This document shows, piece after piece, positions 234 through 23,196 of a stretch of 23,693 nucleotides of DNA (position 1 is the first letter of the stretch; every line of letters starts with the position of its first letter). The translations under genes and the position numbers were made by a program. The notes under the pieces were generated by a model. It did no database searches. It was not told the origin of the DNA and saw only the letters and a program-made list of their open reading frames with translations. The stretch comes from a virus. The stretch is from positions 1-23,693 of the IMG/VR virus record IMGVR_UViG_3300024999_000403; one strand, written 5' to 3'.

Positions 234-803
234 TTAGTTCCCTTCTTTCCATATGAATGATTTGACTTGTTCCCAAACTTCCTGTTCGTTTGTGGCATTG
301 ATGTCGATGAGAATCTTGTTCGGAATGATAGAACGTTGATGAGAATCGATGAATCGATCAACCTCAACCGTCTTCTCTTTCATCCTTGTAGAAAATGATA
401 GACCATCGTCTCGTGAAATGAGGTTAAGCGGTTGGTCAATGAATGTAATGAGATAATTTTTATTCCAATTTCCCTCATCATGATATTTTGCATCCTCTTC
501 AAGTTCCCATATGAAGTTAGCATCATAATCACGATACATTTTACCATAGACCCATTCACCGAGGTGGCTGCGGTCAAGAATGAAACCGTTTGTACCAAGT
601 CCACCTTTATTCAAACGAATGATGTCAAACATTCGCCGATATAACATTTCAGATTTTTTTATGCAGTGATCCTTTTCAGGAATTCCGAGATTTGCAAAAT
701 GTAGGATGAAAGGATACATACCACGAGCTGCAATTTCTTTATAGAGTCTGTTGACCTGTGTGCTCTTACCGACTCGATCTGGCCCTTCACAAAAAATATT
801 CAT
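234..803 (-). CDS. Thymidylate/deoxynucleoside monophosphate kinase-like P-loop kinase
   Basis: This 189-aa protein is a P-loop kinase of the dTMP-kinase type, expected to phosphorylate dNMPs to dNDPs with ATP. The P-loop is GPDRVGKST (residues 7-15), a version of the dTMP kinase GxDGxGKST motif with Arg in place of Gly. A DRS motif with LGEWVYG (about 77-87) matches the nucleotide-binding 'DR' segment of the family. The length is slightly under that of cellular Tmk (about 210). The start overlaps the stop of HEG1 by one base (TAATG), so it is translationally coupled to it. It fits with the ribonucleotide reductase and deoxyribosyltransferase-like genes as part of the dNTP supply. Substrate specificity cannot be read from the sequence. 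Confidence 0.85.
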   Translation of the reverse strand: MNIFCEGPDRVGKSTQVNRLYKEIAARGMYPFILHFANLGIPEKDHCIKKSEMLYRRMFDIIRLNKGGLGTNGFILDRSHLGEWVYGKMYRDYDANFIWELEEDAKYHDEGNWNKNYLITFIDQPLNLISRDDGLSFSTRMKEKTVEVDRFIDSHQRSIIPNKILIDINATNEQEVWEQVKSFIWKEGN

Positions 804-1624
804 TATAGATACCTTTCCCTAAATTTTTCGTCATAACGATCTAACCAAACAATATCGCCTCTATTAAAAATTTCAACTATATCATCCGTTTTTAGTATAT
901 GCATGTCTTTCTCTGTGATTATTATAAAACTATCACCCAATTTATTTTTTGCGGCTTCAAATTTGTGACGATTGGTATAAGCACCTAATAATGACGCGGG
1001 TTTTACTTCAATATAAACATCGCTATTTTTTAAATAAAAATCGGGGAAATAATTTCGTTCTGCCCCATCCATATGATAAGGAATGGCGTGTTTCTTTGTT
1101 TCGGCAATCTCAAATTCGATGTTATTATCATAAAGATATTTCAGATATGATAATTCCATGATTGAACGAAAGTAATGTCCTTTAAACCAACCACTCCAAC
1201 CGTTGCCAGAACCGCGTGGTGCTGGCTTCCCAAACATATTATTCTTTTCGCCAATTTGTGCATCGCTCAACTTCTTTTTAATAATGCGTGATTTTTCAAG
1301 CCCATATACTTCATCAAACGTTTGTCCTTTTTCTAAAAACCTTGGACCAAAATAACTTCCTCCGAAGTTTGAATTCTTCTCCCCCATTGTTGCTTTGCTC
1401 ATCGTCTCCCGAAATATTTTTCCCTTTTCTTCCCCGACGATTTCTTCGATCTTTTTACCTTTTTGTGCTTTCCAAAATGTTTGTTCGGCTGGTTTACGAG
1501 AACCATTTTTATACTGCTCCCGTTGTTTGCAACTCCTACAAAGCTGTCTTCCGTAATTTTTTAAACTACGATTAAGATTAAACTTGCTTAATGTCTTGAT
1601 CTCTTTACCACATTCACACAACAT
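803..1624 (-). CDS. HEG1: free-standing homing endonuclease, NUMOD3 plus PD-(D/E)xK
   Basis: This 273-aa protein has the layout of a phage free-standing homing endonuclease. It starts with a zinc-finger-like pair (C3/C5 and C29/C32). NUMOD3-type DNA-binding motifs follow, with GEKNSNFGG (81-89) and GEKNNMFGK (125-133), and between them repeats of the kind KGKKIEEIVGEEKGK. The C-terminal nuclease core has E157, the PDF motif at 194-196 and E206-V-K208, a canonical E...D...ExK arrangement. It is clearly homologous to HEG2 along its whole length. The ATG has a GAGGAG site 8 nt upstream, but that site is inside a 12-bp hairpin (1635-1666), suggesting controlled translation. Its stop overlaps the kinase start. 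The DNA target is unknown; family assignment is from motifs only. Confidence 0.85.
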   Translation of the reverse strand: MLCECGKEIKTLSKFNLNRSLKNYGRQLCRSCKQREQYKNGSRKPAEQTFWKAQKGKKIEEIVGEEKGKIFRETMSKATMGEKNSNFGGSYFGPRFLEKGQTFDEVYGLEKSRIIKKKLSDAQIGEKNNMFGKPAPRGSGNGWSGWFKGHYFRSIMELSYLKYLYDNNIEFEIAETKKHAIPYHMDGAERNYFPDFYLKNSDVYIEVKPASLLGAYTNRHKFEAAKNKLGDSFIIITEKDMHILKTDDIVEIFNRGDIVWLDRYDEKFRERYL

Positions 1625-1634
1625 TATTTTGTCT

Positions 1635-1666
1635 CCTCAAATAAATTTAAAATTATTTATTTGAGG
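1635..1666 (-). promoter_or_regulatory. Hairpin sequestering the HEG1 Shine-Dalgarno
   Basis: A perfect inverted repeat has 12-bp arms (1635-1646 and 1655-1666) and an 8-nt AT loop. In the minus-strand RNA the 3' arm ends in GAGG, the core of the GAGGAG ribosome-binding site of HEG1, so folding would hide it. The 5' arm and loop edge (1654-1661) contain AATAAATA, a 7/8 match to the T4 late -10 motif TATAAATA. A transcript starting there would lack most of the 5' arm. There is no U-run right after the stem, so it is a poor terminator. Confidence 0.7.
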
Positions 1667-1684: not shown

Positions 1685-1849
1685 TTAAAGAGGGAAGGTG
1701 TAAAGTAAAAATCTTTCCTCAAACTGTTCGTCGGTAATGTCATCGGATATTGCATGAATTCTTATCATATGTGTCTTTATGTTTTCGCCAAACACAATTT
1801 CATTACACAGTGGACATATGTACTTTCGCCCTTCAATAAAAATATTCAT
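1685..1849 (-). CDS. Small C2H2-like zinc-finger protein (54 aa)
   Basis: A short gene begins MNIFIEGRKY and carries CPLCNEIVFGENIKTHMIRIH-type spacing: C12-x2-C15, then H27 and H32. This is close to a classical C2H2 finger but with 11 rather than 12 residues in the central gap. The ATG at 1849 is preceded by AAGGAG with ideal spacing. Promoter P1 lies directly upstream, giving a leader of roughly 20 nt. A DNA- or RNA-binding role is an inference from the finger only. It is the first gene of the P1 unit, followed by HEG1 and the kinase. Confidence 0.75.
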   Translation of the reverse strand: MNIFIEGRKYICPLCNEIVFGENIKTHMIRIHAISDDITDEQFEERFLLYTFPL

Positions 1850-1875: not shown

Positions 1876-1904
1876 TATTATAACAAATTCATTCATCTGT
1901 GTCA
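1876..1904 (-). promoter_or_regulatory. Promoter P1, consensus sigma70 type
   Basis: Minus-strand TTGACA (1899-1904), a 17-bp spacer and TATAAT (1876-1881) match the sigma70 consensus at every position. A TG one base before the -10 also gives an extended -10. The predicted start is near 1869, about 20 nt before the zinc-finger gene. The -35 box begins 5 bp past the stop codon of the 65-aa gene upstream. Confidence 0.9.
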
Positions 1905-1908
1905 ATTG

Positions 1909-4710: not shown

Positions 4711-5244
4711 TTAGCTCATATCCTCAATGATAACAACTTTCTTTCCATCAGCAATTGCTTCAGTAACCGCGCTGCCGATATGAAAATCTTCACGGCACCG
4801 GGAGTAGATGTAGGCCCCGTTCTTCTTTGCCCATTCCACGATGACCGCGCCCTGTTCATCATAATCATGCAGACCGCGCATCCAATCCGGGAGGATCACA
4901 TCAAGCAGTGCACAGATGTTGATAACCTTTACTTCGCCGTATGTGTCCATGACCCGTACGCCGTCAATGCGTTCAATCGGCCATGTGTCCGCGGCAACGA
5001 TTGCTGCTGACTTGATTGCTTTCAGCGTATATTCTTCAACTGTAATCCCGGAGAAGAATTCGTCAATACCTTCATCCGTGCTCGGTTTGGCATTGTCTTC
5101 TTTTTCACCGAAACGAATAACCTCGGCGTCAATGATAATTTCCTTCCCATCGATAGTAACACAAAAATTACCACGATCTTCATCAACGACCCAATTGTCA
5201 AGATAGGCGATCATCATTATGAAAGTGCGATAATTTTTGTTCAT
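4711..5244 (-). CDS. Hypothetical acidic protein (177 aa)
   Basis: The product starts MNKNYRTFIMMIAYLDNWVV and is acidic, with no Walker, zinc or membrane motif that I can see. The C-terminal part (AVIVEWAKKNGAYIYSR, ADGKKVVIIEDMS) looks like an alpha/beta fold. No family is recognised. An AGGAG site lies 8 nt before the ATG. It is the first gene after promoter P3, with a leader of roughly 43 nt. Confidence 0.7.
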   Translation of the reverse strand: MNKNYRTFIMMIAYLDNWVVDEDRGNFCVTIDGKEIIIDAEVIRFGEKEDNAKPSTDEGIDEFFSGITVEEYTLKAIKSAAIVAADTWPIERIDGVRVMDTYGEVKVINICALLDVILPDWMRGLHDYDEQGAVIVEWAKKNGAYIYSRCREDFHIGSAVTEAIADGKKVVIIEDMS

Positions 5245-5293
5245 TGCCGTGTCTCCTGTTGGTTGTTGAGTAAGATTATGTTTCCTTGGTTCA

Positions 5294-5322
5294 ACAATAA
5301 CAAAAAGACACTATCATGTCAA
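5294..5322 (-). promoter_or_regulatory. Promoter P3, sigma70 type
   Basis: Minus-strand TTGACA (5317-5322), 17-bp spacer, TATTGT (5294-5299; 4/6), helped by an extended -10 TG. It sits in a 128-bp AT-rich gene-free stretch (5245-5372). The stretch also holds a weak A/T-only hairpin just upstream of the -35 that might act as a poor terminator for the preceding unit. Confidence 0.75.
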
Positions 5323-7694: not shown

Positions 7695-8153
7695 CTACTT
7701 CGAGGCTTTGGTTTTCGCGACGGTGATGGGCTTGCACTTGAAGGGACGTTTACCGTCATTGACGGTTTTCAGCAGCGGCTTCAATTTCTCTTCGGGAACG
7801 ATCTTCCGAATGGCGCCGATGTTGAAGGTGATGTTCTCCCAGAATTCTTCCTCGGTGATAAGTTCTTTGATCTGTTTCATTCCTTCAACACCACCGACGA
7901 CGGAAGTCTTGGCGGCCTCGGGGGAGAATTGAAGGACGAATGCTTTACCGCCGAAGTTTTCCTTTTCCTCGGGAGCCAAAATCTCGTCAGCCAAGGCAGC
8001 GGCTTCTTTTTGAAGATCGGCGAGCGTTTTGAACTGCGGCTTGGCAAGAATGGCATCGCACTTGATCTGTTGCCGTCCGATACGATCGGCAAGTTTGGTG
8101 AGGGTAAGAATCTTGTCAGCTTTTTCTTCGGGCGTCAAATTTGCTTTTGCCAT
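7695..8153 (-). CDS. Hypothetical Ala/Lys-rich helical protein (152 aa)
   Basis: The start chosen is the ATG at 8153 (MAKANLTPEEKADKILTLTK), with GGAGG 5 nt upstream; an ATG four codons earlier lies in front of that site. The protein is rich in Lys, Glu and Ala and largely helical, with a basic C-terminal end (KPITVAKTKASK). There are no catalytic motifs. Its composition (soluble, highly charged, strong promoter and ribosome-binding site) suggests an abundant early protein, which is inference. It is the first gene after promoter P4. Confidence 0.75.
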   Translation of the reverse strand: MAKANLTPEEKADKILTLTKLADRIGRQQIKCDAILAKPQFKTLADLQKEAAALADEILAPEEKENFGGKAFVLQFSPEAAKTSVVGGVEGMKQIKELITEEEFWENITFNIGAIRKIVPEEKLKPLLKTVNDGKRPFKCKPITVAKTKASK

Positions 8154-8189
8154 GATGGCCTCCATTGTGTTTGTTTGATTGTTGAGACA

Positions 8190-8218
8190 ATAATAACAAA
8201 CAACAGAGGCCGTGTCAA
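8190..8218 (-). promoter_or_regulatory. Promoter P4, sigma70 type with extended -10
   Basis: Minus-strand TTGACA (8213-8218), 17-bp spacer ending TGT, TATTAT (8190-8195; 5/6). The predicted start near 8183 gives a 30-nt leader for the 152-aa gene. Confidence 0.85.
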
Positions 8219-8255
8219 TAAGAAAAATGATTATTTTTACTTTAGATGAATATTT

Positions 8256-8417
8256 TTATCCCTCGTTCAACTGGACAGTCTTTACTTCATCAAGGCGATC
8301 AAATCCACACCGTTCCGTGCACTCACGTTTAACTCTGTTCCCAGGAAGGACCCCGGTGATAATTAAGAGGTTCCCGCAATTTGGGCATTTATCATTGTCT
8401 TTTATTTCATGTAACAT
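8256..8417 (-). CDS. Small zinc-ribbon protein (53 aa)
   Basis: A short gene starting MLHEIKDNDKCPNCGNLLII has C11-x2-C14 and C33/C37 (CTERCGF), the four-cysteine pattern of a zinc ribbon. AGGAGG lies 8 nt before the ATG. It follows the 152-aa gene by 3 bp. A nucleic-acid or protein-binding role would be usual for such ribbons; nothing more specific can be said. Confidence 0.75.
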   Translation of the reverse strand: MLHEIKDNDKCPNCGNLLIITGVLPGNRVKRECTERCGFDRLDEVKTVQLNEG

Positions 8418-8420
8418 TTT

Positions 8421-8879
8421 CTATTCCTCCTTTATTCTTGTAACCCAACAATTATTCCCATGCATAATCCGATGATATATTTCATCTTTGATTATACTAT
8501 TAAGATATTCACGATCCTCGACCGTCAACCATCGCACAAAGCCATCTGTTTTTTCTATTCTTGATGTAGTGACTAACTCGTCTCCGAGATGACAACCGAC
8601 TCTTGCTGGTCTTTTCACACCATCAATTTCACCATAGTAATAAAGTAAATATGGATTGCCGAGTATCAATTGTTCGCCATACTGTGTAGTAATTATATCA
8701 AGAATCTGTGTTTTCTTTTTGACGTGTTCTAACCATAATGTATCCTTGTCATCTTCAACAAATTCACAGTGTTCCTTACAATGTGGGCAGATACTAACAT
8801 CTTGAAAGTCAGGGCCGTCGGGTCCCATCATTCTATTTTTTCTCCCAACAGCAATTACTAATCTTTTCCATGCATTCAT
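8421..8879 (-). CDS. Hypothetical protein with CxxC motif (152 aa)
   Basis: The product starts MNAWKRLVIAVGRKNRMMGP and contains CPHCKEHC (about residues 31-38), a likely metal site. The C-terminal part (EDREYLNSIIKDEIYHRI) is helical. No family is recognised. AAGGAG lies only 2 nt before the ATG, closer than usual, so the start is somewhat uncertain. The gene lies 32 bp after the DinG-type helicase, in the same direction. Confidence 0.65.
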   Translation of the reverse strand: MNAWKRLVIAVGRKNRMMGPDGPDFQDVSICPHCKEHCEFVEDDKDTLWLEHVKKKTQILDIITTQYGEQLILGNPYLLYYYGEIDGVKRPARVGCHLGDELVTTSRIEKTDGFVRWLTVEDREYLNSIIKDEIYHRIMHGNNCWVTRIKEE

Positions 8880-8911
8880 TTCTCCTTATCACACGAAGGC
8901 CGGTCATGTTT

Positions 8912-10564
8912 TTACATCTGAATTCTATCAACAAACCATTTTGGTAATTCATTTTTACACTGTTCTATAAAAAAAGGAAAACTACTATCAAGTACATATG
9001 TGACCGAGTGATCTTCTTCTGATCTTGTAGCTCTCCCGCTTGCTTGCATGATTTCCTTCAGCATTTGATTAACATACCATTTACCTTCTTTCATCTTCGC
9101 TTTAACCCGCGGATCAGCCATGCTTGCAAATGGGAGCTTGACTATAATCTGAAACCTAGCAAGATCGTCATCAAGACTTATACCTTCACTCATAGAAGGA
9201 CTGAGCAAAACAGTTGGTGTTCTCGATTCCATGTGTTTCTTGATCAGAACATCATTCTTGATTCCGAACTTGAAGTTCACGGGGTCCATACCACGACTGA
9301 GCAATCGTGATCGGTTTCTTTTAACCCTTTTAGCAATATCATCGGTGATACGATAGTTGACGCTGTGTATGATTCCCTTTTCTGTCTTGTGATGATCCAT
9401 GATGTGGTCAACAGCATCAGCAATTTTCGGTAGTGTTGCTGTGATGTTTTGGTAGTTCATCTTACCAATGGGAAGGACGATGATCGGTGACATATCTGGA
9501 GAGAACGGAGAATCAACTTCAATGTATTCGACTTGATCGGCCGGCAAAGCAAGCTCACGAGCAAATTCTACAGCAGAACCGATTGTTGCTGACATGAATA
9601 CAAACTTGCTCGCCGATTCCCCAATGAACTTTTGAAAAAGACCACGAGCCGAAAGAGGTGTGATAGTCAGGTGATTCTCGTCGGCATTTGATTCGACGAT
9701 CCATTCTTCAAGGTCTCGACGTTCAAAGTAAATCTCGAGCTTCTTAACGACCTTATCAATATCACTGACCTTTGCACTAATCTTATTGATCTTCTCGAGG
9801 ATCGGTTTAGATATGTTCTGCATCGGTGTGTTTTCATCAATGCCATTATCAGCATAAATGTTATCACGGTCCTTCGTCCACTCTGCTTTACGAGCCATGA
9901 TTGCCCTCGTCATTGAAACAAGAACCTTCATATCCTCATTCTTTGACCCGTTGAAGAACCATGTCAGATCAGAAATACCGTACCGCTCTTTTAGTTCTGC
10001 CGGTTTGAGTATGATCTCCGCAAATCCAACAAGATAACCTTCAAGGGCATGGGCTTCGTCCATGATACAAACTTCACGGGGTGTAACTTGCTTCTCGTCA
10101 GATAGTGGACCACACAATCGGGCAAAGAGATAGTATGCATAGTTGGTCAGCATCACGGGTGCTTCCATTGCCTTGTTTCGTTGATTGATATACGGACACA
10201 CTTGACGAGCTTGACACTGCCTGATGATCTGCGGCATTGCTGCACAGGGAGCAGATTCGCATGTCATCAGTTGATTAATACCGCACTTATAATTTCCCTT
10301 ACCGCGAAGGTCAACAACACCCCCGGGATTCTTGTACTGATCTTGAAGTTGTTTAGAGGAAGTGATGATGTGGGCATTGCGAGCTGACTCAGCAATTGCC
10401 TGTGCAATGAACTGCTTTCCGACGCCCACCGGCGCGCTTAATAACACAAATCGTTTTCCGGAATTTAATGCATTTATTATCTTTGTAATAGATTCAATTT
10501 GTATTTGACGTGGGGTCAGATTGTTCTTCTTGAAAAAATTCATGCCTTTTTTGTAGTCCAACAT
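8912..10564 (-). CDS. DinG/XPD-family SF2 DNA helicase
   Basis: This protein of about 550 residues is a superfamily-2 helicase of the XPD/DinG branch. Motifs in order: LTPRQIQIESI, Walker A APVGVGKQ, a cysteine-rich insert (YKCG, CESAPC, CQARQVC) where XPD-type enzymes hold a 4Fe-4S cluster, the DEAH box, VFMSAT, SPSMSEGISLDDD and finally QASGRATRS (motif VI). Family members unwind DNA or D/R-loops in 5'-3' direction. The Gln after the GK of the Walker A is unusual (Ser/Thr expected). I prefer the ATG at 10564 (MLDYKKGMNFF), with GGAAG upstream, over a TTG at 10573. The 5' end overlaps HEG2 by about 70 bp in another frame. Confidence 0.85.
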   Translation of the reverse strand: MLDYKKGMNFFKKNNLTPRQIQIESITKIINALNSGKRFVLLSAPVGVGKQFIAQAIAESARNAHIITSSKQLQDQYKNPGGVVDLRGKGNYKCGINQLMTCESAPCAAMPQIIRQCQARQVCPYINQRNKAMEAPVMLTNYAYYLFARLCGPLSDEKQVTPREVCIMDEAHALEGYLVGFAEIILKPAELKERYGISDLTWFFNGSKNEDMKVLVSMTRAIMARKAEWTKDRDNIYADNGIDENTPMQNISKPILEKINKISAKVSDIDKVVKKLEIYFERRDLEEWIVESNADENHLTITPLSARGLFQKFIGESASKFVFMSATIGSAVEFARELALPADQVEYIEVDSPFSPDMSPIIVLPIGKMNYQNITATLPKIADAVDHIMDHHKTEKGIIHSVNYRITDDIAKRVKRNRSRLLSRGMDPVNFKFGIKNDVLIKKHMESRTPTVLLSPSMSEGISLDDDLARFQIIVKLPFASMADPRVKAKMKEGKWYVNQMLKEIMQASGRATRSEEDHSVTYVLDSSFPFFIEQCKNELPKWFVDRIQM

Positions 10565-11432
10565 ATTTTTCAAATCTTCCTTTATTATGCTCGCTTAAAT
10601 TAATTCTTCCGGCAATAAAATCTTCAGCCAATTCTGTCTTGTATGTTGGAAAATCCTTTTCGGTTAAAACTTTAAATCTTTCCCTATATAAATTAATTGC
10701 TGCGGCGAATTTCAATTTATTATCATCCGAATTAATTAATCGTGATGGTTTTATTTCTATAATCTCCCCCGTACCCAAGACATAATCCGGGTAGTAGTTT
10801 CTCTTACAACCATCTTTTTCATATTCAACTCGATATTCCTTAGACTCCCCAGAAACAAACGGAATCTTTATTGTAACAAGATGTTTGATGAATGTCAATT
10901 CAAGAGTGCTTCGAAAATGAAAACCCTCATACATTCCGGATATACCTCGACCAGAACCAACCGGGGCGGCTTTACCAAACATATGATTTTTTTCTCCGCA
11001 TCGAGACAACTTCTTCTTTATTAAATCCCCCTTTTCTTTTCCATATTGTTCATCATATGTTTTTCCTATGCGTTTTGCGTTTGCAATATGTTGTCCGGGG
11101 CCGTTAAATTTCCCCCCAAAATTTGAGGCCCTTTCACCAACATACAATTTTAGTTTTTCCCTTGCCTTATTTGCTTTCTCTGTGCCGAGAATTTCTTCAA
11201 ATGTTTTCCCTTTACGCCTTGATGAATTCGCTATATTGGCGGCTGCACTTCGACAACCACCACACAAATCCTTATGATGTTTTTCCCTATTATTTCTTAC
11301 ACAATTATATGAAGAATTAAAAACATGTTTACATTTGTCGCAACACACGTCAATGAGCTGCATTCCCCTGAAACCATCTTTTGAACGCCATCCTCTTCTA
11401 TCTTTACAAATTTCTAGCTCCGTTAAAATCAT
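10494..11432 (-). CDS. HEG2: free-standing homing endonuclease, NUMOD3 plus PD-(D/E)xK
   Basis: This 312-aa homologue of HEG1 has an N-terminal zinc-finger region (C31, C34, C57, C60), then RRKGKTFEEILGTEKANK and NUMOD3-like GERASNFGG (99-107) and GEKNHMFGK (146-154). The nuclease core has E178, the PDY motif (215-217) and E226-I-K228. Its 3' end overlaps the helicase start by about 70 bp in a different frame, unlike the clean junctions of other genes here. The ATG at 11432 has GGAG close upstream, but the start codon is inside a long-range hairpin whose loop carries a TATAAATA late motif. The natural target may lie near the helicase gene, which is inference. Confidence 0.85.
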   Translation of the reverse strand: MILTELEICKDRRGWRSKDGFRGMQLIDVCCDKCKHVFNSSYNCVRNNREKHHKDLCGGCRSAAANIANSSRRKGKTFEEILGTEKANKAREKLKLYVGERASNFGGKFNGPGQHIANAKRIGKTYDEQYGKEKGDLIKKKLSRCGEKNHMFGKAAPVGSGRGISGMYEGFHFRSTLELTFIKHLVTIKIPFVSGESKEYRVEYEKDGCKRNYYPDYVLGTGEIIEIKPSRLINSDDNKLKFAAAINLYRERFKVLTEKDFPTYKTELAEDFIAGRINLSEHNKGRFEKYVGLQKRHEFFQEEQSDPTSNTN

Positions 11433-11496
11433 AAGTGCATCTCCTGTGATTGGCTTTTATTTTATTTATAAAAAGTATACACGATCGTGCACTTAT
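11431..11496 (-). promoter_or_regulatory. Hairpin sequestering the HEG2 start codon
   Basis: ATAAGTGCA in the transcript (11496-11488) is exactly complementary to TGCACTTAT (11439-11431), which covers the A and T of the HEG2 ATG. The stem is 9 bp with a 48-nt loop that contains the GGAG site and a TATAAATA late motif (11463-11470). A read-through early transcript could fold and be silent; a late transcript starting in the loop would lack the 5' arm. A 10-bp palindrome (11480-11489) also lies in the loop and overlaps the 5' arm by two bases. Confidence 0.65.
11463..11470 (-). promoter_or_regulatory. T4-type late promoter motif TATAAATA (HEG2)
   Basis: The octamer is identical to the T4 late -10 element recognised by gp55. 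It is 31 bp upstream of the HEG2 ATG; the start would fall near 11457, inside the hairpin loop and before the ribosome-binding site. By eye this motif occurs perfectly at only two places on this strand, both in front of homing endonuclease genes. Confidence 0.65.
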
Positions 11497-11528
11497 TGGT
11501 GTTTAATTTGACATTCGTTTTTTATCCT

Positions 11529-12227
11529 TTATTTGAGTTTATCCATTGGGTGTTTGCCAACAGAGTACAGAATGTCATTCGTTAAGTCAAGCGCCGTCAA
11601 TCGTCCACCAAACACAACACCGGTGTCAAGACCTATACGACGCTCGTCAATGTGTGGCCATGTTCCTGGTGTGTGGCCGTGCACTACGATCTTGTCCCAC
11701 TTACATTTTGACTCAAGAAAGTCAGCACGAATCCACATCTTATCTTGATCGTTTTGATCTTTGAGTTCGATCGTTGGGTAAAGCCCGGCATGAACAAAAA
11801 TGTAATCGTCTGTTTCAAAATGAGTTGGGAGTTCATCTAAAAACTTTCTATGAGAATCCGGTAATATAAATTTCACCCCACCCATTTCAAATTCTTCACC
11901 GACGACCGGTGGTGTTTCTTTGACCGTGTATGAATCAACCGTCATGGTCCCACCATTATAGAGAAACAACCCCTCTTGATATCTGTCCCCGGCAAGTGCT
12001 CGTATAAACATATCCTCGTGGTTGCCCTTCAGACAAACCATGTTTGGATAGGTGCGTTTCATATCAATCAGTGCCTCAATGACACCACTCGAACGAAGTC
12101 CGCGGTCAATATAATCCCCAAGAAAAACAATGACATCGTTCGTCTTTGGTTTGATTAAACCTAGTAATTTTGCAAGTGAGTAGAGACAGCCGTGTACATC
12201 GCCGATTGGAATAATTCTTTGTTTCAT
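11529..12227 (-). CDS. Calcineurin-like Ser/Thr protein phosphatase / ApaH-type hydrolase
   Basis: This 232-aa metallophosphoesterase carries the family motifs GDVHG (9-13), GDYIDRG (37-43), GNHED (68-72), a VHAGL strand and HGHTPG near the C-terminus, which together bind two metal ions. It resembles the lambda protein phosphatase and bis(5'-nucleosyl)-tetraphosphatase group; sequence alone does not decide between protein and nucleotide substrates. The start is the ATG at 12227 (MKQRIIPIGDVHG) with GGAG 8 nt upstream; a longer frame would run into the coiled-coil gene. It is the second gene of the P5 unit. Confidence 0.85.
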   Translation of the reverse strand: MKQRIIPIGDVHGCLYSLAKLLGLIKPKTNDVIVFLGDYIDRGLRSSGVIEALIDMKRTYPNMVCLKGNHEDMFIRALAGDRYQEGLFLYNGGTMTVDSYTVKETPPVVGEEFEMGGVKFILPDSHRKFLDELPTHFETDDYIFVHAGLYPTIELKDQNDQDKMWIRADFLESKCKWDKIVVHGHTPGTWPHIDERRIGLDTGVVFGGRLTALDLTNDILYSVGKHPMDKLK

Positions 12228-12246
12228 TTTGATGATCTCCAATAAT

Positions 12247-12642
12247 TTAATATGTGTTTTTTCGTAATTCTTCGATTTGATTTTCGAGAGAATCAATTTC
12301 GTCCTTTAATGAACCAACCTGATCTTTGAGATCTTCAATTTCGTCGCCATTATTAGAAATTGTGTCTTCGAGCTTCCAGGATGCCTCTTCTAAATCAGCG
12401 CCCCATTCACGCAGGTTATGATTCGCTTCTCGTATTTCTTCAAGGGCCGACTTATTTCCACTAATAAGATCATTCAATCGGTCGGCGGCCTCTGATAACA
12501 TTTTCATAATATCATTCGGCGTCATTGACATGAAATCGGATTCGAGTAATTGAAGGTCTTCTACCGTTGATTTGATTTCATGTATAACCGAATTGATGTC
12601 TGGACATGTAAATGGCACCGGGCACGTCGTTCTTCTTGCCAT
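12247..12642 (-). CDS. Coiled-coil protein (131 aa)
   Basis: After a short N-terminus with two Cys (MARRTTCPVPFTCPDI), almost the entire protein is heptad-patterned and acidic, with a clear coiled coil over about residues 85-128 (DEIEDLKDQVGSLKDEI and on). It is probably an oligomer. No family is recognised. AAGGAGG precedes the ATG and promoter P5 lies 32 bp upstream. It is followed after 19 bp by the phosphatase. Confidence 0.75.
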   Translation of the reverse strand: MARRTTCPVPFTCPDINSVIHEIKSTVEDLQLLESDFMSMTPNDIMKMLSEAADRLNDLISGNKSALEEIREANHNLREWGADLEEASWKLEDTISNNGDEIEDLKDQVGSLKDEIDSLENQIEELRKNTY

Positions 12643-12673
12643 AAAACAACCTCCTTGATTGGATAAGAGGTGT

Positions 12674-12702
12674 ATTTTAATACATTAGACGATGAATGTC
12701 AA
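12674..12702 (-). promoter_or_regulatory. Promoter P5, sigma70 type
   Basis: Minus-strand TTGACA (12697-12702), 17-bp spacer, TAAAAT (12674-12679; 5/6). The leader to the coiled-coil gene is about 25 nt. The -35 begins 12 bp past the stop of the C39-like gene. The -10 flank GTGTATTTTAA also resembles that of P2. Confidence 0.85.
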
Positions 12703-12714
12703 TAAGAATGAACA

Positions 12715-13206
12715 TTAACCCCAAATTAAGTTGATCGGTATGATGTCAAGAATATGATAATCTGATAAAGGGCGATGATCTTCGACGTCAGGGTTGGGGT
12801 CTCTAACCGATGAACCATCCCAGAACACAGCGTGAAGTCCACTTTCATACTTTTCACTCCGCACCGTCAACATCGCCGGAGAATCCATTGACAACTTTAA
12901 GTACAATGTATCGCCGATGGCGGCGCCATTCACCCCACCGTCATAGTAGTTAGTGTAGGCCGGTTTTAATTCGGGATAGGTGCCGACCATGTAACCACAC
13001 TTTACCATAAAGGCAATCATTTCCTTTAGATAGAAACCCCGAGATGACCCATCATGTCCACAGTGTTCAAAGATATCTGTTATCGGAGAGTGTGTTGCCA
13101 TTGCAATGACGGCCGCAACACAACTACATTTCGTTGGCTGTGTCACCCTTTCTTTTAAAACCGATTTTGCCAATTGGCGAACCGTTGATGTTTTTATTTT
13201 TCGCAT
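12715..13206 (-). CDS. C39/papain-like cysteine peptidase-fold protein
   Basis: This 163-aa protein has the pattern of small papain/C39-like folds: Q23 with C27 or C29 at the start of a helix (QPTKCSCVAAVIAMA), then GLHAVFWDGSSVRDPNP with H125 and Asp residues at 130 and 136, giving a candidate Cys-His-Asp set. It has no signal peptide, so it would act in the cytoplasm. The substrate is unknown; related folds serve as peptidases, amidases or transglutaminase-like enzymes. It overlaps the acetyltransferase gene by 13 bp and is probably coupled to it. GAGG lies 10 nt before the ATG. Confidence 0.6.
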   Translation of the reverse strand: MRKIKTSTVRQLAKSVLKERVTQPTKCSCVAAVIAMATHSPITDIFEHCGHDGSSRGFYLKEMIAFMVKCGYMVGTYPELKPAYTNYYDGGVNGAAIGDTLYLKLSMDSPAMLTVRSEKYESGLHAVFWDGSSVRDPNPDVEDHRPLSDYHILDIIPINLIWG

Positions 13207-13634
13207 TGATCGACATCCTCAATTTTATATTCATGCATGATGTATGTTTTAACAAACCCGACTTTCTCTTTAACAACAATCATCACTTCATTTTCTATCC
13301 CAGTACCAGAGCGAAGTGATTTAATATCCCGGGACCGCGCTTCTTCATTCAAACAACCGAGCATTGCTTTGTAGATGCCTTTGTTCCTATGTTCTTCTTT
13401 TACATATGCCAAGTTTATCCAAATATAATCAGCTTCTGTTTCAAAGAACACCATGATACCAACAACCTCATTTCCGATTGTTGCGGAAATCACCTCATTA
13501 ATGTCTATCACTAATCCTTTGTCGGCAAGATTCTTAGACATAAGATCGGCATAACCATATAATACAAGGGCATATACATCCGTTGGACACTTGCTAAATT
13601 TTGAGTGATGGTTAACAACGATTTCTTCAGACAT
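13194..13634 (-). CDS. GNAT-family N-acetyltransferase
   Basis: This 146-aa protein is of normal GNAT size. The acetyl-CoA binding motif A is visible as LAYVKEEHRNKGIYKAMLG (about 75-93), with the R/Q-x-x-G-x-G/A loop as HRNKGIYKA, followed by a helix (LNEEARSRD) and a C-terminal VGFVKTY strand typical of motif B. The acceptor (protein, small molecule or antibiotic) cannot be told. GAAAGG precedes the ATG. It lies just after the 32-bp palindrome that ends the reductase unit and overlaps the C39-like gene. Confidence 0.8.
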   Translation of the reverse strand: MSEEIVVNHHSKFSKCPTDVYALVLYGYADLMSKNLADKGLVIDINEVISATIGNEVVGIMVFFETEADYIWINLAYVKEEHRNKGIYKAMLGCLNEEARSRDIKSLRSGTGIENEVMIVVKEKVGFVKTYIMHEYKIEDVDQCEK

Positions 13635-13657
13635 TAGTTTAACCTTTCTTTAATTGA

Positions 13658-13689
13658 ACTGGGTGGTTCTGAATTCAGAACCACCCAGT
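13658..13689. terminator. 32-bp perfect palindrome after the reductase genes
   Basis: The segment is its own reverse complement and folds into a 14-bp stem (ACTGGGTGGTTCTG) with an AATT loop. It begins 7 nt after the stop codon of the reductase C-half. The tract after the stem (TTCAATTAAAG) is only weakly U-rich, so it may be a partial terminator or an mRNA 3'-end stabiliser. Confidence 0.7.
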
Positions 13690-13695
13690 GTTGTG

Positions 13696-15525
13696 TTAAC
13701 CGCACTTTGTCCAACTACATGTTTTACAGATCGGACAACCCTCTGACATTTTGAATTCATGACCGCCGCATTCGGGACATGTCATTTCAGCCATCAGATC
13801 ATCTTCATCGATAAAATTCGCAATGAATTTTTTGATTCTGAAAATAAAAGAACCGATCGGTAGATCAAGTGTATCAAGAGTTTTAATAATGTCAATGATT
13901 GGTATGTTATGACGAAGCAATAAGCTCAGCGTCCTTGCGATCTTTGTAACATTTGTGTTACCGATCATCTTTGAATCGTTATCATCAATGATATGTGGAG
14001 CAATACCGGCATTCTTTGCAATTTCCGTTAGCGCCTCAATACAAGCATGGGTATTGACATCAGGCTCGCGGTTATTTGTCTGTACGAAGATAGCGAAGGG
14101 GCGTTTCATTTCGTGATCTTTGAATGCAGCCGAAACATACCACTTTTTACCTTCGGACTTGATCTTGTAACCCTTCATCGGATATTCATCTGGGAGCGAA
14201 ACATCATCAAGGAAAATATGTCCATCCTGGTGATCTTTCCACGAATCAAAAAATTCATGCTGTTGCATTTTGATTGAACTTCCATCATTACTCTTTTTCG
14301 TTTCAAGTACCGACATCATGGTACCTTCACGGTAGGTTGTGATACCCCTTACGCCGTCCCGCCACATCTTACGGAATAATTGGTCAAACTCTTCATAAGG
14401 ATAATCAGCACGAAGGTTAACAGTCTTGGAAATAGAGTTATCGATGTGTGAGGAGAAGATGGTAAACGGGTCAATGTGTTCTTCAACGGTGAGGTCCATT
14501 GCCGTCGTGAATGCGCCATTGGCTTTATATCTTTCCATCTCTTCAACTGAAAGATTCTCTTTACACCACAACCAACCAAAGTCCATACATTCCGTCTTCT
14601 TGACGAGACCACGATTTTTGTCAAAGTAATAATTGCGGCATGTTGACATCAGTACATCGTCATCGCCAACTTTTTCTGCAACGAAGTCTTTCGTTTCAAA
14701 CCATTCACCCTTTGTCACATCAGGGTAAGCCAGTCCTCTTAGTTCCTCATGTATCTTATAGGTAATAGTTACCCAACGAATGTAGTCAAGATCAAAGACT
14801 GGCTCAATTCCACCTGATACAAGCCCCATAAGAATTCCCGTAGTTCCCGTCGGCGCGGCGGTTAGCAGTTGGGAGTTACGAAGACCATAATGACGAATTG
14901 CATCAAGAGTGTTCTTTGTAAGAACGCCCGAATTTTTGACGAACCCACCGTTAAAAATTAGATCTACATCAAAGAGTTTAAATGAACCTTTCTCCTTAGC
15001 AAGCATGGCCGATGCATGATAGGCCGCATTTGCATATGTTGCCATTAGTTGTTGTGTGAATGCGTTTGCATCCCGTGATCCATACTTGAAACCCATCATC
15101 ATCAACAGAGAACCGTAACCGAGGAGACCACAACCGATCTTACGGCGAAGTTGTGCCGATGCCTCGATTCCCGGGAGCGGATAACCAGAAACATCAATGA
15201 TAGAGTCAAGTGAACGGACGAGGAGAGCAATATCGGCCGCATATGTTTCCCAGTCAAATCCTTTATTCTTATCATAGTACATTGGTACATTGATATGCCC
15301 GAGGTTACAGATATCACCAAGGTGATCATAGATGACGCCGTCAATCTCGACAATACCGGCATCAGCCAACATTGCTATCTCTCCGCAATTATGAACTAAT
15401 ATATTATTAGCAAAAAAGTTATGATTTGTTGTTGTTTGAATATCATAGACATCCTGATTTTCAATGACGGTTATTCTTTTAATTCGTTTTCTAATTACTT
15501 TAGCAGGATTCGTTCCTGTTTCCAT
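13696..15525 (-). CDS. nrdJ: Ribonucleotide reductase C-terminal half with C-intein (split gene)
   Basis: The 609-aa product begins with a 46-aa C-intein (see separate entry) ending HN, followed by CGEIAML. The extein part (563 aa) has the class II reductase signatures: C47 as the predicted thiyl-radical cysteine in the restored NPCGE loop, CNLGHINVP, APTGTTGILMGL-type phosphate-binding loop, and a C-terminal zinc ribbon (CPECGG, CPICKTC) typical of NrdJ. No NrdB-type subunit gene is visible here, consistent with a cobalamin radical source. Activity requires trans-splicing to the N-half. GAGGAG lies 8 nt before the ATG, inside the end of HEG3, which overlaps by 31 bp. Together the exteins make about 866 aa. 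Confidence 0.9.
   Translation of the reverse strand: METGTNPAKVIRKRIKRITVIENQDVYDIQTTTNHNFFANNILVHNCGEIAMLADAGIVEIDGVIYDHLGDICNLGHINVPMYYDKNKGFDWETYAADIALLVRSLDSIIDVSGYPLPGIEASAQLRRKIGCGLLGYGSLLMMMGFKYGSRDANAFTQQLMATYANAAYHASAMLAKEKGSFKLFDVDLIFNGGFVKNSGVLTKNTLDAIRHYGLRNSQLLTAAPTGTTGILMGLVSGGIEPVFDLDYIRWVTITYKIHEELRGLAYPDVTKGEWFETKDFVAEKVGDDDVLMSTCRNYYFDKNRGLVKKTECMDFGWLWCKENLSVEEMERYKANGAFTTAMDLTVEEHIDPFTIFSSHIDNSISKTVNLRADYPYEEFDQLFRKMWRDGVRGITTYREGTMMSVLETKKSNDGSSIKMQQHEFFDSWKDHQDGHIFLDDVSLPDEYPMKGYKIKSEGKKWYVSAAFKDHEMKRPFAIFVQTNNREPDVNTHACIEALTEIAKNAGIAPHIIDDNDSKMIGNTNVTKIARTLSLLLRHNIPIIDIIKTLDTLDLPIGSFIFRIKKFIANFIDEDDLMAEMTCPECGGHEFKMSEGCPICKTCSWTKCG
15388..15525 (-). other. C-intein (46 aa) of the split intein
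   Basis: Residues 1-46 contain intein block F (VYDIQTTTNHNFFANNIL) and block G (VHN followed by C+1). The penultimate His and terminal Asn needed for Asn cyclisation are present. The N-terminal part is strongly basic (KVIRKRIKR), opposite in charge to the acidic N-intein. The first residues METGTNP repeat the TGTNP sequence of the N-extein end. Confidence 0.9.
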
Positions 15526-16250
15526 ATTTTAAGCTCCTCGTGATAATTTTTACAATATTTAGATATGTCGTGTATAACGATCATTTTAATGTTAGGATAG
15601 TCCTTCTTCATCAAATCAATTTTATACATTCTATTCTTAAAAAAACCCTTAACCTCGACGATGTATAGAAGTTGACCATTATCATCAAAAATTGAAAAAT
15701 CGGGGCGGTAACTTTCACCGCTTGATAAATGAAAGTGTTCTCCTTCAAACTCCCAATTAATGTTTTTATCATCAATCCATTTTGCATAAATGAATTCCCA
15801 TGTAGATCTTAACCATACGAATTGGCCATTTTTCCTTTTAAAATATCCCTGTATTCCTTTTGACGTAGATGCATGCATCTCTGGTATTCTGTTTGTCCAA
15901 TCATACCAAGGATTCTTATTGCCTTTAACACGAGCACTACGGAATTCATCTGTTTTTGATGTCGATATGTCATAACCACGTCTGATATCTATTTCTAAAT
16001 AGACGAATAATGATCGTATTCTAGAATATGTAAGGCCGATTTCCCTAGCGATAACTTTTAAACCATATCCATCATCATATACACTTTTTAGATATTTTAT
16101 CGTTTCTTCTGTGGGGCGTTTTGTATCAACCAGTGCCTGTTTTCTTTTTGCCTTTGGATACGAAACTACATTTTTATAAAATTTAATCAATTCATCTTTA
16201 TGTGTTGTATCAAAGTCAAATCTAAGTGTATCTTTATTCCATGGATTCAT
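15495..16250 (-). CDS. HEG3: homing endonuclease inside the fractured reductase gene
   Basis: This 251-aa protein lies between the two halves of the split-intein reductase. It has a helix-turn-helix-like region (about 62-85, GLKVIAREIGLTYSRIRS), a NUMOD3-like GNKNPWYDW (110-118) and a C-terminal nuclease core with E152, the PDF motif (183-185) and E199-V-K201. The core is like that of HEG1 and HEG2, but the N-terminal part is different and lacks the zinc finger and double NUMOD3 units. AAGGAG precedes the ATG, within a 16-bp hairpin. The stop overlaps the C-half gene. Its natural target is probably the uninterrupted reductase gene, which would let the whole block home. Confidence 0.85.
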   Translation of the reverse strand: MNPWNKDTLRFDFDTTHKDELIKFYKNVVSYPKAKRKQALVDTKRPTEETIKYLKSVYDDGYGLKVIAREIGLTYSRIRSLFVYLEIDIRRGYDISTSKTDEFRSARVKGNKNPWYDWTNRIPEMHASTSKGIQGYFKRKNGQFVWLRSTWEFIYAKWIDDKNINWEFEGEHFHLSSGESYRPDFSIFDDNGQLLYIVEVKGFFKNRMYKIDLMKKDYPNIKMIVIHDISKYCKNYHEELKIWKQERILLK

Positions 16251-16285
16251 AAATACTCCTTTTTAGAAATATTTATAAATCCATG
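16240..16285 (-). promoter_or_regulatory. 16-bp hairpin over the HEG3 start codon
   Basis: In the transcript CAUGGAUUUAUAAAUA (16285-16270) pairs with UAUUUAUGAAUCCAUG (16255-16240): 15 Watson-Crick pairs and one G-U. The start codon is in the 3' arm and the AAGGAG site in the 14-nt loop. The 5' arm contains the TATAAATA late motif. An RNA starting from that motif would lack the 5' arm and be open for translation. Confidence 0.8.
16270..16277 (-). promoter_or_regulatory. T4-type late promoter motif TATAAATA (HEG3)
   Basis: A perfect late -10 octamer lies 20 bp before the HEG3 ATG, with predicted initiation near 16264, in the hairpin loop. It is downstream of the stop codon of the reductase N-half (16300), so it would serve HEG3 and, by read-through, the C-half. 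Confidence 0.7.
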
Positions 16286-16299
16286 TGGTTTTTTGATAT

Positions 16300-16605
16300 T
16301 TAATCTACAAGCAGTAAAATATCGTCATCGTTTAATAATGCCGCCTCGACGTAACCGCGATTTTCCGTAAACACTTTATGGTCTGGTGTTAATTCAAGAA
16401 TCATGTCATCATCCAACTCAATTTTAATAACATCCGTGTTATTTCTTGTTTTATCAGCAAATACGATGTTTTCGTATTCAAGACAAAGTGTTTCGGTGTT
16501 CATTGTTAATGCTTTAAATTTATCACCAGCTTTATAACGATCACATAATTCTTGGATTGTAATATCGCCACCATCAGTCTTAACAACGGTGTTCCCAACA
16601 ACACA
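16300..16605 (-). other. N-intein (101 aa) of the split intein
   Basis: It corresponds to residues 304-404 of the N-half. Block A starts with C304 (CVVGNTVVKTDGGDITI), and block B has TPDH (residues 73-76 of the intein) followed by KVFTENRGYVEAALLNDDD. The fragment is acidic, ends LLLVD and then a stop, with no endonuclease domain. From memory it resembles the metagenomic NrdJ-1 split intein. Confidence 0.9.
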
Positions 16606-17514
16606 GGGATTAGTTCCGGTTACTTTCTGATAATAAATGAGATTATTAAAACGATTTGCGCTATCGATGAAATAGATACCGGGTTCATTGCGTGTATATG
16701 TATTTTTGAGAAGAAGTTCCCAGAGATCGCATGCCTTTATTGTTTTGTAAACATATTTCGGAAGTCCAGCCTCTTCCCATTTATCAAAATCACCATCCCA
16801 CAGCTCGTCATATTTTTCATAACGGATATCGGGGAACCATAGTTCCCAGTCATCATCGGCAGCGACGGCTTCCATAAATTTATCGGTGACGATAACTGAC
16901 ATATTGAATTTCGTCAGACGACCAGGAATCTTCTTGGCCTCGATGAAATCAATGATCTCGGGGTGGCGGCAATCAAGCATCGCCATTTGTGCACCCTTGC
17001 GGATTTTCTTTTTTGTTGGTTTCCCGTCATCTTGGTGTAATTCACCGGAATCACCACGAGTAATGACGTCTGCACTGACATTATAAATGTCCATGAATGA
17101 AACAACACCCGGGGTCCCGACACGTACACCTTTGATGAGTGTACCACGTGGCCGAATATGGTTGAAGTTAAAACCGATCCCACCTTCTGTTTTCAAAATC
17201 TCCGCGGCATTCAGAAGATCGGTGAAGATTCCCTGAATAGAGTCATAAGGTTTTTTTGCTCTTTGTGCACCGTAGCAGTTGAACGAGTTCGTTTTACCGT
17301 ATGATGTATTTGTGTTAGCAATAACACGACCACCAAAGGAGATGCGGCGGGACATCATTGCATCAAATAATGCTTGCTGCATTACGGGACCGCCATCATG
17401 GAGAATACCACTAGCAAGTCGCCACATCATTCCTTCGATTGTTTCACCGTTGAACCGATAGTGATCACTCCAAATATCATGCTGAAACTCATTAATAAAA
17501 AAATTCAAATTCAT
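16300..17514 (-). CDS. nrdJ: Ribonucleotide reductase N-terminal half with N-intein (split gene)
   Basis: The 404-aa product has 303 aa of reductase followed by a 101-aa N-intein. The extein contains SFNCYGAQ, with the Cys of the redox pair, a KTEGGIGFNFNHIRPRG segment and GVVSFMDIYN, all typical of the catalytic barrel of class II (and class I) reductases. It breaks off at VTGTNP, where the conserved loop NPCGE should be completed by the C-half. The enzyme reduces ribonucleotides to deoxyribonucleotides for phage DNA synthesis. AGGAG lies 6 nt before the ATG. It follows the FmdB-like gene by 12 bp. The NrdJ rather than NrdA call rests on the C-half's zinc ribbon and the lack of a nearby NrdB. 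Confidence 0.9.
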   Translation of the reverse strand: MNLNFFINEFQHDIWSDHYRFNGETIEGMMWRLASGILHDGGPVMQQALFDAMMSRRISFGGRVIANTNTSYGKTNSFNCYGAQRAKKPYDSIQGIFTDLLNAAEILKTEGGIGFNFNHIRPRGTLIKGVRVGTPGVVSFMDIYNVSADVITRGDSGELHQDDGKPTKKKIRKGAQMAMLDCRHPEIIDFIEAKKIPGRLTKFNMSVIVTDKFMEAVAADDDWELWFPDIRYEKYDELWDGDFDKWEEAGLPKYVYKTIKACDLWELLLKNTYTRNEPGIYFIDSANRFNNLIYYQKVTGTNPCVVGNTVVKTDGGDITIQELCDRYKAGDKFKALTMNTETLCLEYENIVFADKTRNNTDVIKIELDDDMILELTPDHKVFTENRGYVEAALLNDDDILLLVD

Positions 17515-17526
17515 GTAGTGCTCCTA

Positions 17527-17823
17527 TTATTTTCTGTTGGCTTCTCGATCAGCGCGGACATAATCTTTTGCTATCTCTTCAATTCGTTTCTCACCGTCAA
17601 GATTCTTATCGGTCTCCATGTCGGTGATTCCATATTCTTGATCGGACCAACCATTGCCCTTTAATTTAAAACGAAATTGGTTTGGTATTTCCTGAGACAT
17701 TGTACTTCCGCATTTTTCACAACGAATGTTTTTCTTTAATTCGTCATGATCTCGCATAGGCACAATGCGTTCGACGGGATTCTTACACTCCTCCCGGTCG
17801 CATACAAAAACGTATGATGGCAT
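17527..17823 (-). CDS. FmdB-like zinc-ribbon protein (98 aa)
   Basis: The N-terminal half has the four-cysteine ribbon C8, C13, C35, C38 (IRCEKCGSTMSQEIP), with the order of small FmdB-type zinc ribbons: a YVFVCD strand, PVERIVPM, HDE, then the second Cys pair. The rest (KGNGWSDQEYGITDMETD) is a charged tail. Such proteins are putative regulators with no proven activity. AAGGAG lies 6 nt before the ATG. It is directly upstream of the reductase. Confidence 0.8.
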   Translation of the reverse strand: MPSYVFVCDREECKNPVERIVPMRDHDELKKNIRCEKCGSTMSQEIPNQFRFKLKGNGWSDQEYGITDMETDKNLDGEKRIEEIAKDYVRADREANRK

Positions 17824-17859
17824 GTGGTGCTCCTTGTAGTGGGGTATTTGTTTGAAAAA

Positions 17860-18297
17860 TTATCCGAGAAGGATAAAGGTGGGTTTTTGGTTGTTCATTG
17901 TTAGGAGATTGTAGATTGTAACGGCGGGGATGATTCTGAATACTGCTTGTGGTTCGTCGATGTAAACCTTATTAAGCGGTTTGATATATTTTACATCAAC
18001 GTCAAGATCTCTAACACAAACGACCGATGATGATAGATCACGTCCGATTTCCCTGGCAGATGCTTCGTTGAATGTTATGACAAGGTCATGTGGGCCAGCA
18101 TGCTGTCTGATGTATGATGATTTACCTGTCTGCCGACCAATATCGACTTTGACGGTGCAGCACTCCATTGCATATAAACCCGGTGATAGAAGATCTTCTA
18201 TCTTCGATGAAAATGCCTCTCTGTACTTTTTGTTGAGATCGATGAGGGAGTCTATTACTACATGATACTCCTTTTGAATTTCTTCTGGTACATTCAT
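17860..18297 (-). CDS. Mini P-loop ATPase (145 aa)
   Basis: The protein has a clear Walker A, GRQTGKSS (54-61), after a beta strand (CTVKVDI), and a Walker B, KVYIDEP (110-116), followed by a strand ending PTFILLG. The GRQTGKS form is commonest in terminase and helicase-like motors, but the protein is far too short for a full terminase or helicase and lacks further motifs. It may be a stand-alone ATPase domain or a remnant. The ribosome-binding site is weak (GGAT), and the start is 5 bp after the zinc-ribbon stop, suggesting coupling. Confidence 0.7.
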   Translation of the reverse strand: MNVPEEIQKEYHVVIDSLIDLNKKYREAFSSKIEDLLSPGLYAMECCTVKVDIGRQTGKSSYIRQHAGPHDLVITFNEASAREIGRDLSSSVVCVRDLDVDVKYIKPLNKVYIDEPQAVFRIIPAVTIYNLLTMNNQKPTFILLG

Positions 18298-18302
18298 AAT
18301 TA

Positions 18303-18563
18303 TTATCCGATGAGAGCATAAGGATCAAATCGCTCCGGTTTGGGGTTAACACTCATATCGTAAAGAATCTTCTCGATTCGGCGAACTCTTTCGTCAATCG
18401 TCATGGAATCGAGCACATCAAAATGAGCCTTCTCTTTAACTTCCTTTTCTAACTTTTCGCAGTCACTACAAAGAAGCTCGCTGATGTAACCCATCCTCGC
18501 CGGCACCCCCGTACGATACACCTTCTTACAGGTCGGACATTTAACTTCAACCATTACAGCCAT
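18303..18563 (-). CDS. Small zinc-ribbon protein (86 aa)
   Basis: Cysteines at 9, 12, 32 and 35 (CPTC and CSDC) form a zinc ribbon; the rest (KLEKEVKEKAHFDVLD) is helical and charged. It starts MAVMVEVKCP after the primase with a 7-bp gap, with AAGG 10 nt before the ATG. A DNA-binding accessory role next to primase is possible but unproven. Confidence 0.7.
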   Translation of the reverse strand: MAVMVEVKCPTCKKVYRTGVPARMGYISELLCSDCEKLEKEVKEKAHFDVLDSMTIDERVRRIEKILYDMSVNPKPERFDPYALIG

Positions 18564-18570
18564 TTATTTA

Positions 18571-19560
18571 TTACCTTCCTCTCTTCAGTCTCCCAAGTTT
18601 TAACATGACCCTGGCTATTCCTTGTGGACCAGAGAATATGTTTTCATCAACCATTTTCTTGATCTGTGGTGGTGTAACACCTTTACAGATCAGTTCGTTA
18701 AAATCCTTCGATTGTAACTGATCCGGCCAAATGAATACTCTTTCATTTTGATTAAGGTACTTGAGACTTTTCTCCCAACCGGTCCTGTCATTATCAAAGC
18801 AAAATATCGGATGCTTCAGTGTTTTCCGAACGGTCACCGATAGGTCAGAACCTAACATTGCGATGGCATTGTCGATGAAGAACGAATCTATGATGGCCTC
18901 AAGAACATAAACATTTCTATCTGAATCAACATTGAAGAAATTGTAGACCTTGAATGAATCATTCTTGGTGAATGTCTGAAACCGCTTCTTACCTTCGATA
19001 GTTCTACCCTGAAAACCAGTAACGCTTTCTTCGTCGTAACTGAGTGGGAAAATCAACATATTGTAGAAGTCGGTGTTTTTCTTAGTACCAAAGAAAAGGG
19101 TATCAATGATGGCATCTGGGAATTTCCTCGAGCGGCAATATTCAACGGCCTTTGGAATTTTGCGGGCGGGGGTGAATGTACGTGGACTTAATTTAAAAAC
19201 GTATTTTGGTTCTGATGACCCTTCAGTAAACTTGGCGATCGTCCTCTTTTTAAATATAGACCTTCCGGATTTCAATTCCTTCACCAGCTCGTCTTTTTCG
19301 ACCCGGCAATATTGTTTATAGAGCTCGTAATCAAGGTCTCTTATAAGCGTTTTTAATGACCTTGGTTCACAACCGTTCTGACAGCAGAAAGTATTGTGCC
19401 CTCTCGTTCCGTTGTCAAAAAGATAGTAACCGCGTCTCTTCCACGGAGACTTGCCTTCATTACACAGAGGACAAGAGAAACGGAAGTTACGGCCTTCTTG
19501 GCGAAGATTTCGTAGGTTGAGTTTATGGATGAACTCTATTTCGGTAAAGTAGTCAATCAT
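18571..19560 (-). CDS. DNA primase, T4 gp61-like (DnaG/Toprim family)
   Basis: This 329-aa protein has a zinc-binding domain (C30, C33, C60, C64) followed by a Toprim core with E221 (VLEAIIDSF) and D256-N-D258 (CFDNDRTGW), and K285-D286 in LQSKDFNEL. The size matches T4 gp61 (342 aa). It would make RNA primers together with the gp41-like helicase encoded in the same cluster. A longer frame begins at a TTG that is actually part of the -35 box of promoter P6, so I use the ATG at 19560 (MIDYFTEIEF). This ATG has no ribosome-binding site and lies 13 bp after the -10, predicting a nearly leaderless mRNA. Confidence 0.85.
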   Translation of the reverse strand: MIDYFTEIEFIHKLNLRNLRQEGRNFRFSCPLCNEGKSPWKRRGYYLFDNGTRGHNTFCCQNGCEPRSLKTLIRDLDYELYKQYCRVEKDELVKELKSGRSIFKKRTIAKFTEGSSEPKYVFKLSPRTFTPARKIPKAVEYCRSRKFPDAIIDTLFFGTKKNTDFYNMLIFPLSYDEESVTGFQGRTIEGKKRFQTFTKNDSFKVYNFFNVDSDRNVYVLEAIIDSFFIDNAIAMLGSDLSVTVRKTLKHPIFCFDNDRTGWEKSLKYLNQNERVFIWPDQLQSKDFNELICKGVTPPQIKKMVDENIFSGPQGIARVMLKLGRLKRGR

Positions 19561-19573
19561 AGGAAGGTCAGAT

Positions 19574-19602: not shown

Positions 19603-19605
19603 CTA

Positions 19606-19788: not shown

Positions 19789-19800
19789 ATTATGATCTCC

Positions 19801-21585: not shown

Positions 21586-21588
21586 TTA

Positions 21589-23179: not shown

Positions 23180-23196
23180 TATGTTGTTGTGAATTA

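What the first reader, a model, noticed from the sequence alone, without database searches (positions are those of the whole stretch)
1635..1666. Third hairpin in front of HEG1 hides the Shine-Dalgarno
The arms are a perfect 12 bp and the 3' arm contains the GAGG of HEG1's site. The late motif is 7/8 (AATAAATA). All three homing endonuclease genes in the window are thus hairpin-controlled, while no other gene here shows a comparable hairpin at its start. A common rule for mobile-gene silencing is suggested.
Basis: partly seen in the sequence, partly recalled or inferred. Interest (0 to 1): 0.6.

Follow-up and report, generated by a model that had tools for sequence, protein, structure and literature searches.

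The report
Late-promoter hairpin silencing a phage endonuclease
In this T4-related phage, most selfish DNA-cutting (homing endonuclease) genes start with an RNA hairpin that hides the ribosome site in long early messages, while a late promoter inside the hairpin makes short messages without it; this is the known T4 I-TevI trick, used unusually widely here and also by some ordinary genes.

Summary
The hairpin is real: 12 perfect base pairs (window 1635-1666) covering GAGG of HEG1's Shine-Dalgarno (SD), with AATAAATA at its 5' arm. It is one of 29 such repeats in about 163 kb of this phage; simulated sequences gave none. The genome encodes a T4-type late sigma factor and clamp, so a late transcript should start near 1648, lack the 5' arm and free the SD, whereas an early transcript from a 12/12 sigma-70 promoter upstream carries the closed hairpin. 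This is the I-TevI/segB/mobE device of T4-like phages.

All three window endonuclease genes have it, as do 13 of 17 putative homing endonuclease genes genome-wide (6 of 10 found by domain search alone). But 'no other gene here' is wrong: window genes 7695-8153, 12247-12642 and 4711-5244 have SD hairpins as strong. The major capsid gene and a RuvC-like gene have the late version, and eight non-endonuclease genes have a version whose 5' arm lies within a sigma-70-like promoter. The better rule: a gene is translated only from its own promoter's transcript; homing endonucleases are the main late users. Nothing was measured.

The parts
1635..1666 (-). HEG1 leader hairpin: perfect 12-bp arms, 8-nt loop
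1633..1638 (-). HEG1 SD GAGGAG; GAGG is inside the 3' arm
   Evidence: sequence
1654..1661 (-). late-promoter-like motif AATAAATA; predicted late start near 1648, downstream of the whole 5' arm
   Evidence: start inferred from T4 late-promoter spacing
803..1624 (-). HEG1, putative PD-(D/E)XK homing endonuclease with NUMOD3 motif
1877..1905 (-). 12/12 consensus sigma-70 promoter with extended -10, pointing at HEG1; no terminator-like site between
1685..1849 (-). small ORF (54 aa) between that promoter and HEG1
11431..11496 (-). HEG2 start hairpin with TATAAATA (11463-11470) in its loop region; SD and start at the 3' side
10494..11432 (-). HEG2, putative PD-(D/E)XK homing endonuclease
16240..16285 (-). 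HEG3 start hairpin, 21 pairs, TATAAATA (16270-16277) in the 5' arm, SD and start codon in the 3' arm
15495..16250 (-). HEG3, putative PD-(D/E)XK homing endonuclease lying between two halves of a ribonucleotide reductase that carry intein halves
8157..8218 (-). comparison, non-HEG gene 7695-8153: SD hairpin whose 5' arm lies between TTGACA (8218-8213) and the -10
5249..5322 (-). comparison, non-HEG gene 4711-5244: SD hairpin (5249-5311) whose 5' arm lies just downstream of TTGACA (5322-5317)

Best explanation
The inverted repeat is an RNA switch set by where the transcript starts. Early transcripts that run in from upstream contain both arms, fold the 12-bp hairpin and hide HEG1's SD, so HEG1 is not translated early. 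Late in infection a T4-type late RNA polymerase (gp55 with the gp45 clamp) starts at AATAAATA in the 5' arm; that RNA begins near 1648, lacks the 5' arm, cannot fold the hairpin and is translated. Shown from sequence: hairpin, SD overlap, motif position, presence of late sigma and clamp genes, an early promoter upstream with no terminator found. Inferred: promoter use, start site, repression in vivo, and that HEG1 homes.
For: SD inside the stem, z -3.9. Opening cost 12.5 kcal/mol in read-through RNA, 2.7 in late RNA, 6.5 with shuffled upstream sequence. Late sigma factor (phrog_234, 1e-42) and clamp; ATAAATA the most enriched upstream 7-mer, 27 seen, 2.4 expected. Early promoter 12/12, no terminator. 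Same arrangement in 13 of 16 late-motif HEGs, and each 5' arm fits its own leader: -15.4 against -7.9 kcal/mol when swapped, 0 of 20,000 permutations. The same code recovers T4 I-TevI, I-TevII, e and 49. Precedent with experiments in T4 and Aeh1.
Against: No expression data. The motif is 7/8, not exact. No relative close enough to test conservation of this hairpin. Four of 17 HEGs fall below the 5 kcal/mol switch, and related phages do not always have it.
Confidence: 0.8

Rival explanations
1. The repeat is a DNA operator: HEG1 or a repressor binds the palindrome over the late promoter and shuts transcription, as I-TevI does at its operator. It could act together with the RNA hairpin.
For: I-TevI represses its own late promoter through an operator that overlaps it.
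Against: Arms differ from gene to gene and each is complementary to its own SD region; a shared operator would not need that.
Confidence: 0.1
2. The hairpin is a transcription terminator of the upstream small ORF.
For: Perfect stem in an intergenic gap after ORF 1685-1849.
Against: Only 3 of 12 pairs are G-C, the stem is followed by AGACAAAATAATG with no T run, and no terminator-like site was called.
Confidence: 0.04
3. A chance A+T-rich palindrome without function.
For: Nine of 12 pairs are A-T and ATAAATA is a simple word.
Against: No such repeat in three simulated genomes, z -3.9, and the same arrangement recurs before other HEGs.
Confidence: 0.03

Closest known systems
T4 I-TevI, I-TevII, segB and Aeromonas phage Aeh1 mobE leader hairpins (PMC2988022)
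   Same: Homing endonuclease gene whose SD is hidden in a hairpin on early/middle transcripts, with a late promoter placed so that late transcripts lack the 5' arm.
   Different: Different nuclease fold for HEG1-3 (PD-(D/E)XK, not GIY-YIG or HNH); a distant T4-like phage; most of its HEGs have the device, against 3 of 15 in T4 by the same calculation.
T4 genes e, soc and 49 (PMC3014915)
   Same: Late, non-mobile genes with the same SD hairpin and late-promoter layout; parallels the capsid and RuvC-like genes here.
   Different: Not mobile genes.
Fractured genes with split inteins and homing endonucleases (Dassa 2009, cited in PMC3653736; paper itself not held)
   Same: HEG3 lies between two gene halves that carry intein halves.
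   Different: The device here is upstream RNA control; trans-splicing and the HEG family of that paper were not tested.
IS10-type protection of transposase from outside transcription (own knowledge, not looked up)
   Same: A mobile gene insulated from read-through RNA by a structure that its own promoter's RNA lacks.
   Different: Bacterial insertion sequence with a host promoter; unrelated sequence.

Membership tests
I-TevI-type late-promoter-embedded SD hairpin | SD lies in a stable stem on transcripts from upstream | tested here: met
I-TevI-type late-promoter-embedded SD hairpin | Late promoter placed so that late RNA lacks the 5' arm | tested here: met
   Motif AATAAATA at 1654-1661, predicted start 1648; 7/8 match, start site not measured
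I-TevI-type late-promoter-embedded SD hairpin | Phage has T4-type late transcription | tested here: met
   gp55-like sigma and gp45-like clamp, motif enrichment
I-TevI-type late-promoter-embedded SD hairpin | Translation delayed until late infection | not testable with these tools
   Needs expression data
I-TevI-type late-promoter-embedded SD hairpin | Autorepressor operator over the late promoter (I-TevI itself) | not tested
   HEG1 target site unknown
PD-(D/E)XK nuclease (HEG1-3) | Catalytic E ... PD ... ExK | tested here: met
   Invariant E157, P194-D195, E206-x-K208 in HEG1, HEG2, HEG3 and a relative; top structural match TnsA, weak E-values
Homing endonuclease | Site-specific cleavage and gene conversion into empty sites | not testable with these tools
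   Called from nuclease motifs, NUMOD3 and position only
Fractured gene with split intein (HEG3) | HEG between gene halves ending and starting in intein halves | tested here: met
   RNR and Intein_splicing matches on both flanking ORFs; same layout in L003
   11 of 266 non-HEG genes have a switch of 5 kcal/mol or more, 3 late and 8 early

The most novel reading that the evidence does not exclude
This phage uses a general origin-of-transcript licence for translation: in many genes, early (sigma-70) or late, promoter DNA encodes the 5' arm that hides the SD, so a gene is translated only from its own promoter's RNA and stays silent in read-through RNA. That would keep early genes off in late transcripts and late selfish genes off in early ones.
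Probability: 0.4. Interest if true: 0.65.

Novelty: new member of a known kind. Interest (0 to 1): 0.45.

Why it matters
It extends a well-studied T4 mechanism to a distant T4-like phage and another nuclease fold, and suggests that one hairpin-plus-late-promoter design stands in front of most of this phage's homing endonucleases. The sigma-70 version on non-mobile genes, if real, would be a broader way for compact polycistronic phage genomes to separate early and late expression without terminators.

Tried and rejected
Terminator reading: no T run, none called. HEG-only rule: rejected. Conservation of the HEG1 hairpin in relatives could not be tested: one short hit in viral contigs. The HEG3 relative L003 and the HEG relatives L012 and L014 show no late-motif SD hairpin at the start examined. 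Two relatives carrying the late sigma, G004 and G005, showed no late gene with a switch of 5 kcal/mol or more; G005 has one early case that its shuffled control also reaches. For all sigma-70-type candidates together, own pairing is only modestly better than swapped (-15.2 against -11.7 kcal/mol); the signal comes from a subset. A paper search for a sigma-70 version in phages found nothing.

Full report
What is there. HEG1 (803-1624, - strand) is preceded by a perfect 12-bp inverted repeat, 1635-1666, as described. On the HEG1 strand it reads CCTCAAATAAAT-AATTTTAA-ATTTATTTGAGG-AGACAAAATA-ATG. The 3' arm holds GAGG of the SD GAGGAG, and AATAAATA runs from the 5' arm into the loop. Folding gives -17.5 kcal/mol against a shuffled mean of -7.7. 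HEG2 and HEG3 have start hairpins too, with the only two exact TATAAATA of the window inside them.

The genome. Window 8039-23693 is 99.99% identical to one end of a 155-kb viral contig, G001 (IMGVR_UViG_3300025012_000031), so about 163 kb of this phage could be examined. It has a gp23-type major capsid protein and a DNA helicase, a UvsY-like mediator, and a late sigma factor and sliding clamp. The closest listed capsids are about 25% identical, from Campylobacter phages. ATAAATA is the most enriched 7-mer upstream of its genes. T4-type late transcription is therefore likely.

How the switch would work. A start six bases beyond the motif, the T4 late spacing, falls at about 1648, after the whole 5' arm. 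The predicted cost of opening the SD-to-start region is 12.5 kcal/mol in read-through RNA and 2.7 in late RNA. Upstream, a 12/12 sigma-70 promoter (1905-1877) points at HEG1 with no terminator-like site between, so early read-through is expected. As a positive control the same code recovers T4 I-TevI, I-TevII, e and 49.

How general it is. Seventeen putative HEGs were counted: GIY-YIG, HNH, PD-(D/E)XK, DUF559-like and a few weaker calls. Of the 16 with a usable late motif, 13 show a switch of 5 kcal/mol or more, against 3 of 14 late-motif non-HEGs. Several HEGs came to attention because of the motif, so the fairer figure is 6 of 10 HEGs found by domain search against 11 of 266 other genes, p = 4e-6. 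Each 5' arm fits its own leader better than other leaders. Two HEGs, G001 57217 and 52532, share the core CTTTATAAATAAAAATAAAG but have different self-complementary arms around it; 104068 has a close variant. That is the trace expected from selection for pairing rather than for sequence.

Window genes 7695-8153, 12247-12642 and 4711-5244 have sequestration as strong as the HEGs. 7695-8153, 4711-5244 and six other non-HEG genes carry the 5' arm in or next to a sigma-70-like promoter, upstream of its expected start, so their own transcript should escape while read-through RNA is silenced; 12247-12642 stays partly folded either way. The capsid and RuvC-like genes have the late version. The rule is better stated as translation licensed by transcript origin, with HEGs the heaviest late users.

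The endonucleases. HEG1-3 share invariant E, PD and ExK residues. A model of HEG1 is confident only in its nuclease domain, and its best structural matches are TnsA, at weak E-values. HEG3 lies between two ribonucleotide reductase halves with intein halves. Homing itself was not tested.

Limits. Genes were called by a simple script, so some starts may be wrong; transcript starts are inferred from consensus spacing; the 5 kcal/mol threshold is my choice. Opening costs differ slightly between calls because the folded context was -70 to +35 (used) and -110 to +40. Nothing was measured.

Noticed in passing
window 13696-17514: A ribonucleotide reductase is split into two ORFs that end and begin in intein halves, with HEG3 between them; the same layout occurs in another phage contig, L003.
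   Followed up: partly
G001 28934-31482 (L005:9134-11682): A second apparent fractured gene: DNA topoisomerase II pieces on both sides of a putative HEG (G001 30174-30959); the downstream piece begins like an intein C half.
   Followed up: partly
G001 45213-46421 (L006:5613-6821): Strongest SD hairpin of the genome, 27 bp, before a non-HEG gene of unknown function (phrog_2319); its 5' arm spans a sigma-70-like promoter.
   Followed up: partly
L042 and L043, T4 122742-123032 (alt.-3) and 135772-136278 (alc): Two T4 genes with near-identical early promoters also show the sigma-70 version of the switch in the same calculation.
   Followed up: no
window 13658-13689: Perfect 32-bp palindrome TGGTTCTGAATTCAGAACCA-type repeat just after the reductase gene, probably a bidirectional terminator; not tested.
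   Followed up: no
L014 (Campylobacter phage CP20) 775-1887: A HEG2-like gene lies between two ORFs annotated as PhoH-related ATPase, another apparent gene split.
   Followed up: no
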